From an uncultured Ruminococcus sp. (GTDB lineage Bacteria; Bacillota; Clostridia; Oscillospirales; Acutalibacteraceae), in contig CACYWT010000017.1 in NCBI GenBank assembly GCA_902778175.1, forward strand, positions 1 through 47,126: a DNA stretch of 47,126 nt, read 5' to 3'. This document shows positions 5,996-47,126 of this stretch, piece by piece. The notes beneath the pieces were generated by a model that saw only the letters and a list, made by a program, of their open reading frames with translations, was not told the origin of the DNA and made no database searches. Position 1 is the stretch's first letter; each line of letters starts with the position of its first letter. Both the position numbers and the translations under genes were made by a program.

Positions 5996-6304
5996 TTAAA
6001 TCTTAACGCCGATCGCTTCCCTGACATAGCGTGTGATAGAGTCTTTAGCTCTTCCGCTTCCGTGTCTGTCGGGTATCTCGACGATCAATGGCTGTTTGCG
6101 GTTCAGTTTCAGATCATATACAAGCTCCGGACAAAGCTGCACGAGCCTTTCCGTCATCAGTATGACCGCAACATCTTCCATTTCCATTGCTTTGGTCAGT
6201 GCCTCCCTGACCTCTTTTTCTTCATGGACAACAACTCCGTTTATCCCTGCAAGATGCATTCCCATCATCGTGTCCACGTTATCACTTATCAGATAAAACT
6301 TCAT
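5996..6304 (-). CDS. atpF: V-type ATP synthase subunit F
   Basis: A 102-residue protein (MKFYLISDNVDTMMGMHLAG...) with the small alpha/beta fold of subunit F, the central-stalk regulator that binds subunit D. The stretch VAVILMTERLVQLCPELV fits the family pattern I-x-I-T-E-x-(I/V/L)-A. The open frame extends upstream to 6490, but those 62 extra codons are translated GC-rich repeat (MPRAEPEAQRQTRIA...) and should not be annotated. The ATG at 6302-6304 has an AGGAGG ribosome site ten bases upstream, at the edge of the repeat. Separation from atpK is 324 bases, unlike the 12-70 base gaps elsewhere in the operon. Confidence 0.92.
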   Translation of the reverse strand: MKFYLISDNVDTMMGMHLAGINGVVVHEEKEVREALTKAMEMEDVAVILMTERLVQLCPELVYDLKLNRKQPLIVEIPDRHGSGRAKDSITRYVREAIGVKI

Positions 6305-6590
6305 ACCTTCCCTCCTCGCCCGGGCTGCCGCCCGGATCCTCCCGGGCTGCCGCCCGGACCTGCCCGGGGCGTTGCCCCGGACCCCACCAAAGGCTCTGCC
6401 TTTGGGATCCGGCAGGGAGCAAGCTCCCTGCACCCGCGCACTTCGTGCTATTCGCGTTTGTCGCTGCGCCTCCGGCTCCGCTCTGGGCACAGGGCGGTAG
6501 TTCTTTTGCCGCGGTTTTTACTAACTGACAATCGCGGCTTCAATAGCAACGAGCTATAATTACACGGAGCGTAAGCGGAGTGTGACAATA
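6305..6590 (-). repeat. Hairpin-rich dispersed repeat inside the V-ATPase operon (atpF leader)
   Basis: The gap between atpK and atpF is filled by a GC-rich mosaic also present at 21906-22140 and partly at 26653-26770. It contains, in + coordinates, stacked CCGGGC-type hairpins (6314-6380), CCAAAGGC-TCT-GCCTTTGG (6387-6405), GCAGGGAGC-AA-GCTCCCTGC (6412-6431), a GCAC-TTC-GTGC hairpin (about 6439-6449) and a conserved block with CGCTGCGCCTCCGGCTCCG followed by a GGTTTTTACTAACTGACAA segment (6451-6540). In gene direction the GC module ends against the atpF ribosome site. Lying within the operon, it must be transcribed between the membrane and head subunit genes. Confidence 0.8.
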
Positions 6591-12403: not shown

Positions 12404-12455
12404 TTAATCTAATTCATAATCTAATTCATAATTCATAATGCATAATGCATAATGA
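12404..12455. repeat. AT-rich tandem repeat (CATAAT units)
   Basis: Repeats of CTAATTCATAAT pass into ATTCATAATGCATAATGCATAATG, the reverse reading of the ATTATGCATT decamer seen at five other places in the window. It marks the left edge of an AT-rich accessory patch. Confidence 0.8.
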
Positions 12456-13680: not shown

Positions 13681-13794
13681 GAAAAACGAACTATCGCCTT
13701 GAGTTCAGAGCGGAACTTCGTTCCGCGACCAGCTCGAATCGACACCGGCGGCACGCCGGTCATTATGCATTATGCATTATGCATTATGCATTGG
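13681..13794. repeat. Hairpin mosaic and ATTATGCATT tandem repeat
   Basis: Contains GCGGAAC-TTC-GTTCCGC (13710-13726) and CCGGCG-GCA-CGCCGG (13745-13759), then four copies of ATTATGCATT ending at the queH stop codon. The first two are members of the TTC-loop and TGC/GCA-loop hairpin classes found elsewhere in the window. Confidence 0.75.
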
Positions 13795-13795
13795 A

Positions 13796-14434
13796 TTAAG
13801 TTTTCTCTCGTGTACTGCTCTTGGAAAAAACGCATCCGCAGTAATTCTGACGGTAAAGACTGAACTGCGCCGAAAGCTCTATCGAACGCTTGTAGCCGCC
13901 GCGCTTTTTGAAATCGGAAAACAGATACGGTATCCCGTATTTTTCGCTTACGCTTTTTCCTATGGCGTTGAGTACCGCGCTGTCCTTCTGCGGAGATATC
14001 GAAAGCGTGGTCGTGAAATAATCGCTCCCGAGGCGCAGAGCCTCCTGCGCACTTTCCTCAAGCCGCATACGGTAGCATTTGCGGCACCTTGCTCCGCGTT
14101 CGGGTTCATGCTCAAGCCCCTTTGCCATTTCAAAGAATCTTTCGGGGTCGTACCGTCCTTCGGAGAAAGCTACTGCCGGACACATCTCCGAGATAAGTCT
14201 TTTCACCTCGGAAACACGGTATCTGTATTCCTTTTCGGGAGAAATATTCGGATTATAATAAAACAGCGTTATATCAAAATATTTCGTCAGATATTCCAGC
14301 ACATAGCTGCTGCACGGAGCGCAGCAGGCATGAAGCAAAAGAGCGGGACGTCTGTTTTCTTTGACGATATTTTCCAGGGTCTTGTCGAGGATAAGCTGAT
14401 AATTCACCCTCGGCGTCTGTTTTTCACCGTTCAT
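13796..14434 (-). CDS. queH: Epoxyqueuosine reductase QueH
   Basis: QueH reduces epoxyqueuosine to queuosine in tRNA, replacing the cobalamin enzyme QueG. The 212-residue protein has the family signature HACCAPCSSYV (Cys 37, 38, 41), then FYYNPNISPEKEY, RCRKCYRMR (about 115) and the C-terminal YCGC, which supply the ligands of the Fe-S cluster and redox disulfide. The open frame runs up to 14527 inside aguB, but MNGEKQTPRVNYQL at 14434 has an AGGGG site and lies four bases after the aguB stop, so it is the likely start. It is the third gene of the agu operon, a context with no clear metabolic link. Confidence 0.93.
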   Translation of the reverse strand: MNGEKQTPRVNYQLILDKTLENIVKENRRPALLLHACCAPCSSYVLEYLTKYFDITLFYYNPNISPEKEYRYRVSEVKRLISEMCPAVAFSEGRYDPERFFEMAKGLEHEPERGARCRKCYRMRLEESAQEALRLGSDYFTTTLSISPQKDSAVLNAIGKSVSEKYGIPYLFSDFKKRGGYKRSIELSAQFSLYRQNYCGCVFSKSSTREKT

Positions 14435-16432: not shown

Positions 16433-16574
16433 CCTCTTTCTTTATTGCTTTTCTGCCTTGCGGCAGAAAGATCAGTTCGTGGAGGAACTAAACAAGGGGA
16501 CGCCCTCTTTCTTTATTGCTTTTCTGCCTTGCGGCAGAAAGATCAGTTCGCGGAGGAACTGAACAAGGGGACGC
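16433..16574 (-). repeat. Tandem 71-bp leader units ahead of aguA
   Basis: Two copies with period 71 bases, differing at a few positions. Each unit, read on the minus strand, has AGTTC-CTCC(G/A)C-GAACT and TTCTGCC-GCAA-GGCAGAA hairpins, then AATAAAGAAAGAGG. In the last copy this GAGG is the aguA ribosome site; in the first it runs on into the next unit's GCGTCCCC. A third partial start of the unit is seen at the right window edge. Confidence 0.85.
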
Positions 16575-16626
16575 CCTCTTTCCCAGGGCGTCCCCTCTTA
16601 AAAAAAGCCCCACCGGGGCTTTTTTT
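16566..16626. terminator. Double hairpin, second one a bidirectional intrinsic terminator
   Basis: AGGGGACGCCCT-CTTTCCC-AGGGCGTCCCCT (16566-16596) is followed by AAAAAAAGCCCC-ACC-GGGGCTTTTTTT (16600-16626), with A and T runs on both flanks. It separates infB from aguA. An almost identical pair in opposite orientation is at 47051-47112. Confidence 0.85.
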
Positions 16627-16848
16627 AATTCACCCCTTGCGGAGGGATTGTCGCTTGGAGTATTTCGCCGACTGCGGTCGGCGACGAGGGCGCTGCCCTC
16701 GACCTGCAAGCCTTTAAAAAGGCTTGACCTAAACTTTCCGTTCTGTTTCCCATGAGTTTCTTCCCGGCGCGAGTTACGAAGCTTCCCAACGTGCCCAGAG
16801 CGGAGCGCAGCGAGCGACCAACGCGAATTGAGAGCGCAGGCACTGCGC
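16627..16848. repeat. Dispersed hairpin element, copy A
   Basis: Aligns over its length with the reverse complement of 46801-47050. Conserved flanks enclose GCCGAC-TGCG-GTCGGC (16667-16682), GAGGGC-GCT-GCCCTC (16686-16700), AAGCCTTT-AA-AAAGGCTT (16708-16725) and GCGCAG-GCA-CTGCGC (16834-16848). The corresponding stems in the other copy differ but still pair. A long shared stretch (16726-16800, with CCATGAGTTTCTTCCCGG) is unstructured. It lies downstream of infB and upstream of the aguA leader. Confidence 0.85.
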
Positions 16849-16849
16849 C

Positions 16850-16921
16850 ATTATGCATTATGCATTATGCATTATCAAAGTTATGCATTATCAAAGTTAT
16901 GCATTATCGAAGTTATGCATT
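16850..16921. repeat. ATTATGCATT decamers merging into 16-bp repeats
   Basis: Two and a half ATTATGCATT units pass into three 16-base units of GCATTATCAAAGTTAT (one with CGAAG). The block ends about 12 bases past the infB stop. Confidence 0.85.
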
Positions 16922-16933
16922 AAGATAGAAGTA

Positions 16934-21433: not shown

Positions 21434-21904
21434 TTAAATATTGAAGTCGTCCAGTTTAATATATACTGTGTCTTTCTTTTTTATGACGGTTTCTTCTCCC
21501 TGCTCCGACATGATCTCCACTGTTTCCTTATCGTGGGCGATCAGAGTTCCTTTTATATCCCTGTTTCCTGATCCGTCGGGGCGTATAAGCTTTATCATGA
21601 CGGGCGCGCCGATAAATCGGTCAAAATGCCGGTCGAGCAGCAATTCTCTTTCTATCCCCGGCGACGATACTTCCAGTATGTAGTTGCCCTCTATGGGGTC
21701 AAGCTCATCAAGCGGCGCATCTATCGCCCTTGTGACCGTTTCGCAGTCCTCTATGGTAACTCCCTCGTCTTTGTCTATGTATATCCTCAGATACCACAAA
21801 GCTCCTTCTTTTACATACCTCACGTCCCACAGCGTAAGCCCCAGCCCCTCGACTATCGGCTCCACTAACTCCGTCACTTCCGCTACTGTATTCTTCTTTG
21901 CCAA
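21434..21904 (-). CDS. rimP: Ribosome maturation factor RimP (TTG start)
   Basis: RimP helps assemble the 30S subunit. The 156-residue protein has the VEPIVEGLGLTLWDVRYV start of the N-domain, LRIYIDKDEGVTIEDCETVTRAIDAPLDE and the hallmark YILEVSSPGIERELL. The open frame continues upstream to 22090, but the extra 62 residues (MYSERSRRRSDQRE...) are translated dispersed repeat. The TTG at 21902-21904 has GGGAGGATCAAA immediately upstream, and LAKKNTVAEVTEL matches family N-termini. First gene of the nusA-infB operon. Confidence 0.93.
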   Translation of the reverse strand: MAKKNTVAEVTELVEPIVEGLGLTLWDVRYVKEGALWYLRIYIDKDEGVTIEDCETVTRAIDAPLDELDPIEGNYILEVSSPGIERELLLDRHFDRFIGAPVMIKLIRPDGSGNRDIKGTLIAHDKETVEIMSEQGEETVIKKKDTVYIKLDDFNI

Positions 21905-22285
21905 TTTGATCCTCCCTCTCCCCGGCTGCCTCCCCGGACTGCCCTTCCCGGGCTGCCCTTCCCGGGCTGCCGCCCGGACCTGCCCGGGGCTCCTCGCCCC
22001 GGACCCTCGGCAGGGAGCAAGCTCCCTGCACCCACGCACTTCGTGCTTTTCGCGTTGGTCGCTGCGCCTCCGGCTCCGCTCTGAATACAAGGCGGCAGTT
22101 CACTGGTCGCGGTTTTTACTAACTGACAACCACAGCTTTATAGTCGGATCCCGACAGAACTGTCAACGCGAACTGACACCGGCGGCACTCCGGCGCGAAC
22201 TGAGAGCGCAGGCACTGCGCTCTTTAAAAAGGCTTGACCTAAACTTTCAGTTCTGTTTCCCATGAGTTTCTTCCCGGCTCCGCCG
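21905..22285 (-). repeat. Hairpin-rich dispersed repeat forming the rimP leader
   Basis: Read toward rimP, the GC-rich part (22029 to 21910) has GCAGGGAGC-TT-GCTCCCTGC (22010-22029), a GGGGC-GAGGA-GCCCC hairpin, CCGGGC-GGCA-GCCCGG and two 14-base GGGAAGGGCAGCCC-type units, ending at the ribosome site. Upstream are the shared CGGAGCCGGAGGCGCAGCG block and TTAGTAAAAACCGCG segment (22049-22139), GTCGG-ATC-CCGAC (22143-22155), GACAG-AA-CTGTC (22153-22164), a damaged CCGGCG-GCA hairpin (22179-22193), GCGCAG-GCA-CTGCGC (22206-22220) and a fragment (22213-22275) matching 16714-16770 of copy A. The gap contains no gene. Confidence 0.82.
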
Positions 22286-22287
22286 CC

Positions 22288-22336
22288 ATTATGCATTATG
22301 CATTATGCATTATGCATTATCAAAGTTATGCATTAT
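22288..22336. repeat. ATTATGCATT tandem repeat
   Basis: Three to four decamers followed by a CAAAGTTATGCATTAT unit, the same order as at 16850-16921. Confidence 0.85.
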
Positions 22337-22352
22337 ATATGGATTGTATATA

Positions 22353-22384
22353 AGTAAAAGAGTGGGTCGCCCCACTCTTTTACT
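22353..22384 (-). terminator. Perfect 14-bp hairpin downstream of rmuC / at the start of the rimP leader
   Basis: AGTAAAAGAGTGGG pairs perfectly with CCCACTCTTTTACT; the minus-strand loop is GCGA, a GNRA tetraloop. The 3' side ends in CUUUUACUUAUAU. It may terminate rmuC transcripts, but it also lies just inside the transcript of the promoter at 22407-22435, where it could act as an attenuator. Confidence 0.7.
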
Positions 22385-22406
22385 AACCTCCATAATTACT
22401 TTACAT

Positions 22407-22435
22407 ATTTTAGCATACAAAAATAAAATATGCAA
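22407..22435 (-). promoter_or_regulatory. Extended -10 promoter facing rimP-nusA-infB
   Basis: On the minus strand TTGCAT (22430-22435), 17 bases, then TGC-TAAAAT (-10 at 22407-22412). It points to rimP, whose start is about 500 bases away through a hairpin and the repeat block. Confidence 0.7.
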
Positions 22436-26273: not shown

Positions 26274-26311
26274 TATTGTATTTGACAGAAGAAAAAACAT
26301 ATAATATTATT

Positions 26312-26345
26312 ATAATGCATAATTCATAATGCATAATGCATAATG
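26312..26345. repeat. ATTATGCATT-type tandem repeat (reverse reading)
   Basis: CATAATTCATAATGCATAATGCATAAT immediately abuts the hairpin array to its right. Confidence 0.8.
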
Positions 26346-26652: not shown

Positions 26653-26772
26653 CGGGTGCAGGGCGGTCGACCGCCCTGCCGAGGGTCCGGGGCGAGGAGC
26701 CCCGGGCAGGTCCGGGCGGCAGCCCGGGAAGGGCAGCCCGGGAAGGGCAGCCCGGGAAGGGCAGCCCGGGAA
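26653..26772 (+). repeat. GC-rich hairpin module forming the pdxY leader
   Basis: Reading toward pdxY: GCAGGGCGGT-CG-ACCGCCCTGC (26658-26679), GGGGC-GAGGA-GCCCC, CCGGGC-GGCA-GCCCGG, then four copies of the 14-mer AGCCCGGGAAGGGC (starts 26721, 26735, 26749, 26763). The last copy ends six bases before GGAGG of pdxY. It has the same order and orientation relative to the gene as the leaders of rimP and atpF. Confidence 0.88.
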
Positions 26773-26786
26773 ATGGAGGAAGAAAG

Positions 26787-38930: not shown

Positions 38931-38953
38931 TTTTCCGATCTCCAATCGTAATT

Positions 38954-38986
38954 TAATGCATAATTCATAATGCATAATGCATAATT
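38954..38986. repeat. ATTATGCATT-type tandem repeat in the ychF leader
   Basis: TAATGCATAATTCATAATGCATAATGCATAAT lies between the ychF promoter and start; it is part of the transcribed leader. It adds the spurious MHYELCI residues to the open frame. Confidence 0.8.
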
Positions 38987-39152: not shown

Positions 39153-39155
39153 GAT

Positions 39156-39251
39156 ATTAAAAGCTTTGCTTTCAACAAGCAAAGGCAAGCCGTAGGCTTG
39201 CTGTCGTTCAGTGGGAGATTTTTACTCCCACTGAACGGATATATGGCACCC
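39156..39251. repeat. 96-bp dispersed repeat, copy 1
   Basis: Identical over 96 bases to 42229-42324. It folds into CTTTGCTT/AAGCAAAG, GCAAGCC-GTA-GGCTTGC and GTTCAGTGGGAG-ATTTTTA-CTCCCACTGAAC. The two copies bracket tcdA and asnB in direct orientation. Confidence 0.9.
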
Positions 39252-42129: not shown

Positions 42130-42228
42130 GAATTTCGACTAAAGATATTCAAAAATTTAATTTCATTCTCTGTTTTATAGAATCATTTCCGAAAAAACGC
42201 AAGATAATATAGTAAAAAATGCATATTT

Positions 42229-42324
42229 ATTAAAAGCTTTGCTTTCAACAAGCAAAGGCAAGCCGTAGGCTTGCTGTCGTTCAGTGGGAGATTTTTACTC
42301 CCACTGAACGGATATATGGCACCC
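42229..42324. repeat. 96-bp dispersed repeat, copy 2
   Basis: Identical to 39156-39251. Its right end joins the decayed mnmG fragment through a short ACCCATGGCACCC stretch. Confidence 0.9.
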
Positions 42325-44769: not shown

Positions 44770-45036
44770 ATAACCTATCTTGTAAAGACTGTGAAGGAAA
44801 ATAAGATACTGCTGGATGCGCAAAGAGAGCTGCCGGTCGGTGTAAGGCAGCTGCAAAGGCTGTATGTATAGCTCGTTCCGGAGTTGACCGTCTGATATGT
44901 AGGACGGTACGCAGGGCTGCGTTAAAGGCCGGGGTCTTGTCAGAGATCGCTGAGAGATGCTTTGCATCTGAAAATAGGGTGGTACCGCGAGCATTATGCC
45001 CGCCCCTTGTCCGTATCGGACAATGGGCGGTTTTTT
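44770..45036 (+). ncRNA. Leucine T-box leader
   Basis: The T-box sequence AGGGTGGTACCGCG is at 44976-44989, upstream of leuA. Stem I has an AGAGA motif and a GCTGCC/GGCAGC distal stem with a GGTCGGTGTAA loop. The specifier is read as CTC (44872-44874), followed by GAGTTGACC as in Firmicute leucine leaders. The T-box can pair in an antiterminator with uncharged tRNA-Leu(GAG); otherwise the terminator CCGCCCCTTGTCCG/CGGACAATGGGCGG followed by six T (to 45036) forms. Confidence 0.95.
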
Positions 45037-46806: not shown

Positions 46807-47050
46807 ACACACCGCCACCGGCGGCGGAGTGCCTCCGCGGTCAATTCGCGTTGGTCGCTGCGCCTCCGGCTCCGCTCTGGGCACATCGGGAAGCTTCGTA
46901 ACTCGCGCCGGGAAGAAACTCATGGGAAAAAGAACGGAAAAGTTTCGCCCGCCTTTTCAAAGGCGGCAGTTTCCAAAGGCAGAGCCTTTGGTCGCGCTCC
47001 GCAGAGCGCGAAACACTCTTGCATGAGAATCCCTCCGCAAGGGGTGAATT
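46807..47050. repeat. Dispersed hairpin element, copy B (opposite to copy A)
   Basis: Stems GCGGAG-TGC-CTCCGC (46824-46838), CCGCCTTT-TC-AAAGGCGG (46949-46966), CCAAAGGC-AGA-GCCTTTGG (46973-46991) and GCGCTC-CGCA-GAGCGC (46994-47009) lie between flanks shared with 16627-16848. It directly follows the leuA stop. No gene is present. Confidence 0.85.
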
Positions 47051-47112
47051 AAAAAAAGCCCCGGTGGGGCTTTTTTTAAGAGGGGACGCCCTGGGAAAGA
47101 GGGCGTCCCCTT
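47051..47112. terminator. Bidirectional terminator and second hairpin at the window end
   Basis: AAAAAAAGCCCC-GGT-GGGGCTTTTTTT (47051-47077) then AGGGGACGCCCT-GGGAAAG-AGGGCGTCCCCT (47081-47112). It would end leuA transcripts. The following TGTTTAGTTCCTCC begins the unit that forms the aguA leader, so a similar leader may lie just outside the window. Confidence 0.85.
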
Positions 47113-47126
47113 GTTTAGTTCCTCCA

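What the first reader, a model, noticed from the sequence alone, without database searches (positions are those of the whole stretch)
21905..22140. A multi-hairpin GC-rich module sits against the ribosome site of three unrelated genes in the same orientation
The leaders of rimP (21905-22140), atpF (6305-6545) and pdxY (26653-26772) share one ordered module in gene direction: GGGTGCAGGG-stem hairpin, GGTCCGGGGC...GCCCCGGGCAGG, CCGGGC-GGCA-GCCCGG, then zero to four 14-mers, then the Shine-Dalgarno within about 20 bases of the start. Random insertions would not keep position and orientation relative to three start codons. The sequence shows the arrangement; a role as a shared post-transcriptional leader or a mobile 5'-UTR cassette is inference. 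I know of no described RNA family of this form.
Basis: partly seen in the sequence, partly recalled or inferred. Interest (0 to 1): 0.8.

Follow-up and report, generated by a model that had tools for sequence, protein, structure and literature searches.

The report
Hairpin repeats hugging gene edges
A gut-type bacterium carries about 26 copies of a short DNA repeat that folds into a row of hairpins and usually sits, same end first, right against the start or the end of otherwise different genes; it looks like a self-spreading, BOX-like repeat rather than a shared genetic switch, but why it lands so precisely is unexplained.

Summary
The window has three copies (rimP, V-type atpF, pdxY); the genome has 26 loci. 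The order is hp1-hp2-hp3 plus a variable tail of 14/22-mers. Stems differ between nine genomes yet stay complementary, while GAGNA (hp2) and GGCA (hp3) loops recur. The hp3 end is the near end: 24 of 26 own copies have it within 45 nt of a gene boundary (20 starts, 6 stops among the 26), and it is the closer side in 75 of 81 copies from ten genomes. Neighbour genes are mostly housekeeping with no evident common pathway. Presence is patchy: at pdxY, rimP, plsX and the rpoC end the model finds the module only in the own genome (1 of 30 fetched loci each), and 4 of 7 sites shared with the closest relative found are broken or collapsed there. At rimP and rpoC, native promoter/leader or terminator sequence survives outside the module, so it probably lies inside the mRNA. 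Best reading: a new composite, BOX-like interspersed hairpin repeat with polar placement. A common regulatory leader is not supported but not excluded. No RAYT link; no Rfam match; mobilising machinery unknown; no expression data.

The parts
22010..22029 (-). rimP copy, hp1 (GCAGGGAGCTTGCTCCCTGC)
21982..22004 (-). rimP copy, hp2 (GTCCGGGGC-GAGGA-GCCCCGGGC)
21962..21977 (-). rimP copy, hp3 (CCGGGC-GGCA-GCCCGG)
21919..21961 (-). rimP copy, degenerate 14-mer array running up to the Shine-Dalgarno (21911-21916); start codon TTG at 21904
   Evidence: (TRF 21914-21971)
22355..22382 (-). rimP leader hairpin TAAAAGAGTGGGGCGACCCACTCTTTTA, as in relatives, kept outside the module
   Evidence: read by eye
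22407..22435 (-). promoter-like TTGCAT-17-TAAAAT, same arrangement as in relatives (read by eye; not listed by the consensus scan, which lists another site on this strand at 22323-22295 inside the heptamer repeats)
6412..6431 (-). atpF (V-type) copy, hp1
6387..6405 (-). atpF copy, extra hairpin CCAAAGGCAGAGCCTTTGG between hp1 and hp2
6362..6382 (-). atpF copy, hp2
6319..6357 (-). atpF copy, hp3 and a second 22-mer hairpin unit abutting the Shine-Dalgarno; start codon at 6304
26658..26679 (+). pdxY copy, hp1 (GCAGGGCGGTCGACCGCCCTGC)
26685..26707 (+). pdxY copy, hp2
26712..26727 (+). pdxY copy, hp3
26718..26772 (+). pdxY copy, 14-mer array GGCAGCCCGGGAAG (3.9 copies); Shine-Dalgarno 26775-26779, start codon 26787
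26282..26310 (+). promoter-like TTGACA-17-TATTAT upstream of the repeat-filled pdxY leader

Best explanation
It is a non-coding, composite small interspersed repeat: a polar array of self-complementary hairpins (hp1-hp2-hp3-tail repeats), amplified separately in different species of one gut/rumen Clostridia genus, presumably moved in trans by machinery that was not identified. SHOWN by sequence: many copies; conserved order and complementary stems that differ between genomes; hp3 end nearest to a gene boundary; patchy presence between species; nested insertion, truncation or collapse at shared sites. INFERRED: that copies move; that in the own genome they settle between native promoter/leader and Shine-Dalgarno, or between stop codon and native terminator (seen at rimP and rpoC only); and that there the array folds on itself, leaves the ribosome site about as open as without it, and has a mild effect on expression. 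The polarity most likely reflects how it inserts (a directional target) rather than selection, because the hairpins are palindromic and would serve a purely structural role either way round.
For: Copy number: 29 CM matches in the own genome; 38 of 61 genus genomes searched match, with 49, 30, 29, 24 and 19 copies in G342, G331, G339, G318 and G350. Structure: 3 or 4 stems found in 88 of 106 copies; 13 different fully complementary hp1 arm pairs and 3 with one mismatch, in nine genomes, with recurring GAGNA and GGCA loops. Placement: 24 of 26 own copies within 45 nt on the hp3 side; d3/(d3+d5) median 0.11, below 0.5 in 75 of 81 copies over 10 genomes, p=3e-16 if copies are independent. Neighbours of many kinds. 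Patchiness: R1 finds the module at pdxY, rimP, plsX and the rpoC end in 1 of 30 fetched loci each, the own genome. Decay at shared sites. Inside the message: rimP and rpoC; gap to the start of at most 42 nt at 19 of 20 start-type copies leaves no room for a promoter downstream. Ribosome site: SD-start unpaired 0.68 observed, 0.60 with shuffled module, 0.66 without module.
Against: No transposase, target-site duplication or exact empty site was shown; movement is inferred from distribution. G342 breaks the 'edge of the translated region' rule: d3<=45 nt in 10 of 36, and its copies and those of G347 (2 of 3 below 0.5, median 0.39) are less polar. Polarity of the other repeat families in the same intergenic regions was not tested, so it might be a general feature of these genomes. 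Recurring loops with changing stems would also fit selection for an RNA function. Two of 7 shared copies are identical in both species (78/78 and 77/77), and the end of one gene carries a copy in both G350 and G331, which could reflect selection or old insertions.
Confidence: 0.62

Rival explanations
1. A shared cis-regulatory RNA leader (riboswitch- or protein-binding type) that controls translation or mRNA decay of a regulon.
For: SD-proximal position at 19 of 20 start-type own copies; complementary stems with recurring GAGNA and GGCA loops; at least four neighbours concern translation (RimP, formyltransferase, alanyl-tRNA synthetase, EF-Tu-like GTPase; enrichment not tested).
Against: Many other neighbours do not; 6 of 26 copies face a gene end; module not found at pdxY, rimP and plsX in the 29 other loci fetched for each, although some pdxY loci have little upstream sequence; 4 of 7 shared copies broken or collapsed in G342; no Rfam match to the module at gathering score; predicted SD pairing about the same with and without it.
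Confidence: 0.13
2. Originally mobile, now kept as protective or insulating hairpins at mRNA ends (hp1 outermost facing exonucleases, SD left open).
For: Own copies lie just outside the translated region on either side; very stable predicted folds of -44 to -128 kcal/mol that leave the SD accessible.
Against: Palindromic hairpins would protect in either orientation, yet polarity is strong; decay at shared sites; copies followed by promoter-like sequence in G342 (by eye).
Confidence: 0.15
3. A REP/REPIN family mobilised by a RAYT (Y1 transposase).
For: Palindromic, extragenic, high copy; one Y1_Tnp match in the own genome.
Against: Four of the 7 genus genomes with 10 or more CM matches (G342, G331, G339, G350; drafts 76-93% complete) have no Y1_Tnp match; no module in the 12 Y1_Tnp loci fetched, of 38 matches listed.
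Confidence: 0.04
4. Transcription terminator or attenuator units.
For: Hairpins; hp1 often has an A-tract outside it, i.e. a T-tract on the other strand (by eye).
Against: No terminator-like site inside the module in the four places scanned (rpoC, rimP, pdxY, atpF); the stem to T-run spacing is about 7 nt; a terminator hairpin outside the module is kept at rpoC (the scan lists it on the opposite strand only).
Confidence: 0.05

Closest known systems
BOX elements of Streptococcus pneumoniae (PMC3049150; abstract, section 6 and passages read)
   Same: Composite repeat with fixed outer modules and a variable number of tandem inner units; predicted to fold if transcribed; intergenic; no clear link to gene function; almost absent from most other streptococci; judged likely parasitic by its authors.
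   Different: BOX distance to the nearest gene follows the general decay of intergenic lengths and BOX is over-represented between convergent genes; here copies abut a gene boundary with strong polarity and starts predominate. Here the array is GC-rich, all hairpins, with tail units at one end only. No sequence comparison with BOX was made.
REP/REPIN with RAYT (PMC3116915; passages read)
   Same: Palindromic, extragenic, amplified within a genome.
   Different: No RAYT association found; a single polar array of different hairpins rather than paired inverted REPs.
Stem-loop repeat families of bacteria (PMC2267715; passages read)
   Same: Intergenic repeats sharing a common secondary structure.
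   Different: No family from this genus appears in the table passages I saw; architectures were not compared.

Membership tests
Small interspersed structured repeat (BOX-like, as a kind) | Tens of dispersed, non-coding, intergenic copies in one genome | tested here: met
   26 loci plus 3 matches in one array
Small interspersed structured repeat (BOX-like, as a kind) | Composite build with variable number of tandem units | tested here: met
   variable number of 14-mers or 22-mers after hp3
Small interspersed structured repeat (BOX-like, as a kind) | Lineage-restricted, patchy presence at orthologous sites | tested here: met
   a looser hp1-like pattern does occur in other phyla
BOX element proper (S. 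pneumoniae) | Sequence relation to boxA/boxB/boxC | not tested
   no BOX sequence was compared
REP/REPIN | RAYT (Y1_Tnp) present in genomes carrying the repeat | tested here: not met
   no match in 4 of 7 genomes with 10 or more CM matches (drafts of 76-93% completeness)
REP/REPIN | Repeat flanks the transposase gene | tested here: not met
   0 modules in the 12 Y1_Tnp loci fetched of 38 matches
MITE | Terminal inverted repeats shared with an IS | not tested
   no IS end comparison was run
MITE | Target-site duplication | tested here: inconclusive
   no clean empty site; plsX and rimP flanks differ too much by eye
Cis-regulatory RNA leader | Conserved at orthologous genes | tested here: not met
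   4 sites tested in 30 loci each; 7 sites are shared with G342 only
Cis-regulatory RNA leader | Compensatory stems with conserved unpaired positions | tested here: met
   (GAGNA and GGCA loops recur; common descent not excluded)
Cis-regulatory RNA leader | Regulates the downstream gene | not testable with these tools
   no expression data
Intrinsic terminator | T-tract directly after a stem of the module | tested here: not met
   four places scanned

The most novel reading that the evidence does not exclude
A mobile hairpin array whose unknown mobilising machinery reads the edge of a gene's translated or transcribed unit, placing its hp3 end against the Shine-Dalgarno, the stop codon, or (in G342) the -35 region with fixed polarity; that would be a class of mobile DNA with functional-boundary targeting.
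Probability: 0.2. Interest if true: 0.85.

Novelty: new variant of a known kind. Interest (0 to 1): 0.55.

Why it matters
Small interspersed repeats are usually thought to settle where they do least harm. Here one family sits directly against ribosome sites and stop codons with strong polarity, in several species that each amplified their own version. It offers a natural series for asking how a repeat can be targeted to gene boundaries, and how genes tolerate about 100 nt of GC-rich hairpins in front of the start codon. It also warns against reading such leaders as riboswitches.

Tried and rejected
Rfam at gathering score over the window and by E-value around the pdxY copy: two chance-level matches only, far below their gathering scores. 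Y1/RAYT mobiliser: not linked. Phage origin: no match in the phage records; 0 exact matches in IMG/VR for one sub-variant pattern. Plasmids: one partial 50-nt, 86% match in a Pseudomonas aeruginosa plasmid record, not followed. Terminator reading: not met. A fixed-column count on the MAFFT alignment A2 was not run because varying loop lengths put hp2 and hp3 out of register; stems were read per sequence instead, where the finder accepts at most one mismatch (so complementarity of found stems is partly by construction) and mis-registered some hp2/hp3 stems. Distances: starts at pdxY and the FtsW/RodA-like gene use the first in-frame start codon (17 and 9 nt); the gene caller alone put them at 83 and 90 nt. 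Literature: seven searches of the PMC open library (two of them empty) listed no paper that by title or abstract describes this element; listings were capped and subscription papers are not held.

Full report
OBSERVATION. The three copies are in the window as described. In gene direction each reads hp1, hp2, hp3, a tail of repeats, Shine-Dalgarno, start codon. An 87-nt stretch of the rimP copy is 98% complementary to the pdxY copy, that is, shared in inverse orientation (I2). The atpF copy has an additional hairpin between hp1 and hp2.

GENOME-WIDE. A covariance model from 22 own copies (A1, R1) finds 29 matches at E<=0.01 in the own 2.69-Mb draft: 26 loci, and 3 weaker ones in the array on contig C11. 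An exact composite pattern is found 13 times in the own genome and in none of the other 299 family genomes drawn. With the model, 38 of 61 genus genomes match, with very uneven copy numbers. I fetched 80 further copies from nine relatives, mostly the best-scoring of those listed; for G342, 36 of 49 matches.

STRUCTURE. Over 106 copies a mechanical stem search found 3 stems in 81, 4 in 7, 2 in 16 and 1 in 2. Genomes tend to have their own stem sequences (for example GCAGGG..CCCTGC against CCAGGG..CCCTGG in hp1; CCGGGC, CAAGGGC or CCAAGGGGC in hp2; CCGGGC, CTGGGC or TTGGGGC in hp3): 13 fully complementary hp1 arm pairs and 3 with one mismatch in nine genomes. The hp2 loop is often GAGNA (in copies with the extra hairpin it is AAA, AAC or AGC) and the hp3 loop often GGCA or a short purine loop. 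The change is compensatory; recurring loops fit a strand-specific role or common descent.

PLACEMENT. On the hp3 side a gene on the same strand necessarily shows its start and a gene on the other strand its stop; in the own genome these are 20 and 6 of 26. What is not trivial is the distance: 24 of 26 lie within 45 nt. The exceptions are the trigger-factor gene (165-180 nt, with promoter-like sequence between, by eye) and the C11 array. Over 81 copies in 10 genomes with genes called on both sides, d3/(d3+d5) has median 0.11 and is below 0.5 in 75; own genome 21 of 22, G342 21 of 24, G339 10 of 10, G350 9 of 10, G347 2 of 3. The p-value (3e-16) treats copies as independent, which shared sites are not. 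G342 is looser in distance: d3<=45 in 10 of 36, often with promoter-like sequence after the module by eye. The polarity of other repeat families was not tested. Neighbours by Pfam include biotin carboxylase, an EF-Tu-like GTPase, an FtsW/RodA protein, DNA polymerase III alpha, a topoisomerase A subunit, a formyltransferase, alanyl-tRNA synthetase, a PlsX-type and an aconitase-family protein at starts, and glutamine synthetase, pyruvate kinase, SpoIIE and RNA polymerase beta' at ends. A few concern translation; no enrichment test was made.

INSIDE THE MESSAGE. At rimP, 15 of 15 relatives printed have a promoter-like element followed by a hairpin of the GAGTGGG..CCCACTC type close to rimP (by eye). 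The own genome keeps both, but about 440 nt, mostly repeats and ending with the module, now separate the hairpin from the Shine-Dalgarno; a second promoter-like site lies within those repeats. At pdxY a TTGACA-17-TATTAT site lies 343 nt before the module. At rpoC the module lies between the stop codon (3 nt away) and a terminator-like hairpin (listed by the scan on the opposite strand only). For 19 of 20 start-type copies the gap to the start codon is at most 42 nt, too short for a promoter and a ribosome site.

HISTORY. R1 (E<=0.1) finds the module in 1 of 30 loci each for pdxY and rimP, plsX and the rpoC end, the own genome each time. Limits: in G342 the pdxY contig ends at the gene start and the rpoC contig 97 nt after the stop; some other pdxY loci have only 150-400 nt upstream. 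Six sites are shared with G342 by protein match of the neighbour: biotin carboxylase and a DUF2229 gene with identical modules, pyruvate kinase with small changes, and the EF-Tu-like GTPase, trigger factor and alanyl-tRNA synthetase genes with nested insertions or truncation in G342. At plsX G342 keeps only a remnant (by eye). The end of one gene carries copies of different subfamilies in G350 and G331. So copies arise and decay while the genes persist.

RIBOSOME SITE. Folding 19 own leaders, the SD-to-start region is unpaired 0.68 on average, against 0.60 with the module dinucleotide-shuffled (higher in 17 of 19, p=4e-5) and 0.66 without the module (p=0.14). In silico the array folds on itself and is nearly neutral for initiation.

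MECHANISM. The most economical account is a composite interspersed repeat like the pneumococcal BOX element (PMC3049150: abstract, section 6 and passages read), spread in trans by unknown machinery, with a directional insertion preference. Selection alone does not readily explain polarity because the hairpins are palindromic. RAYT mobilisation is disfavoured. Regulation as a common leader is disfavoured but not excluded.

NOVELTY. No Rfam match to the module and, in seven searches of the open PMC library, no listed paper that by title or abstract describes it. I file it as a new variant of a known kind; the unusual part is the polar abutment to gene edges.

Noticed in passing
L354, L359, L362, L365, L367, L368 (G342), L139 (G318), L170, L176, L054 (own genome): A second element of about 58-64 nt, GGGTGTCC..GGACACC-hairpin-GCGCCGACCGAGCCGGCAGGCGAGAC: 10 distinct copies in the loci fetched, most within or next to hairpin units and several, by eye, in the loop of a module hairpin; in ten loci (nine of them among these) no Rfam family reached its gathering score.
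   Followed up: partly
window 22355-22435 (-): Conserved rimP leader of the genus: TTGCAT-type promoter-like site followed by hairpin TAAAAGAGTGGGGCGACCCACTCTTTTA, in 15 of 15 relatives printed; the Rfam scan of the window at gathering score listed only a T-box.
   Followed up: partly
Genome-contig loci L162-L241: hp1-like GGGTGCAGGG..CCCTGCCGNGG, often followed by a second GC-rich hairpin, occurs in several phyla (Roseomonas, Sandaracinobacter, Desulfovibrio, Chloroflexi, Kiritimatiellaeota, Synergistaceae, Selenomonadaceae); common origin, convergence or chance not resolved.
   Followed up: partly
window 44782-45010 (+): T-box leader (RF00230, 111 bits).
   Followed up: no
window 39155-39251 and 42228-42324: Identical 97-nt repeat, two copies.
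   Followed up: no
window 16433-16652 and 47025-47126: 71-bp tandem repeat and a 101-nt inverted copy at the contig end; the contig may break in this repeat.
   Followed up: no
window 12405-12455, 13761-13803, 16849-16923, 22287-22336, 26303-26345, 38944-38985: ATAATGC/CATTATG heptamer arrays, together with other hairpin repeats upstream of the modules.
   Followed up: no
L052 (G000:C11:60395-60641): A local tandem array of about 43-nt hairpin units resembling the module next to a membrane-transport gene.
   Followed up: no
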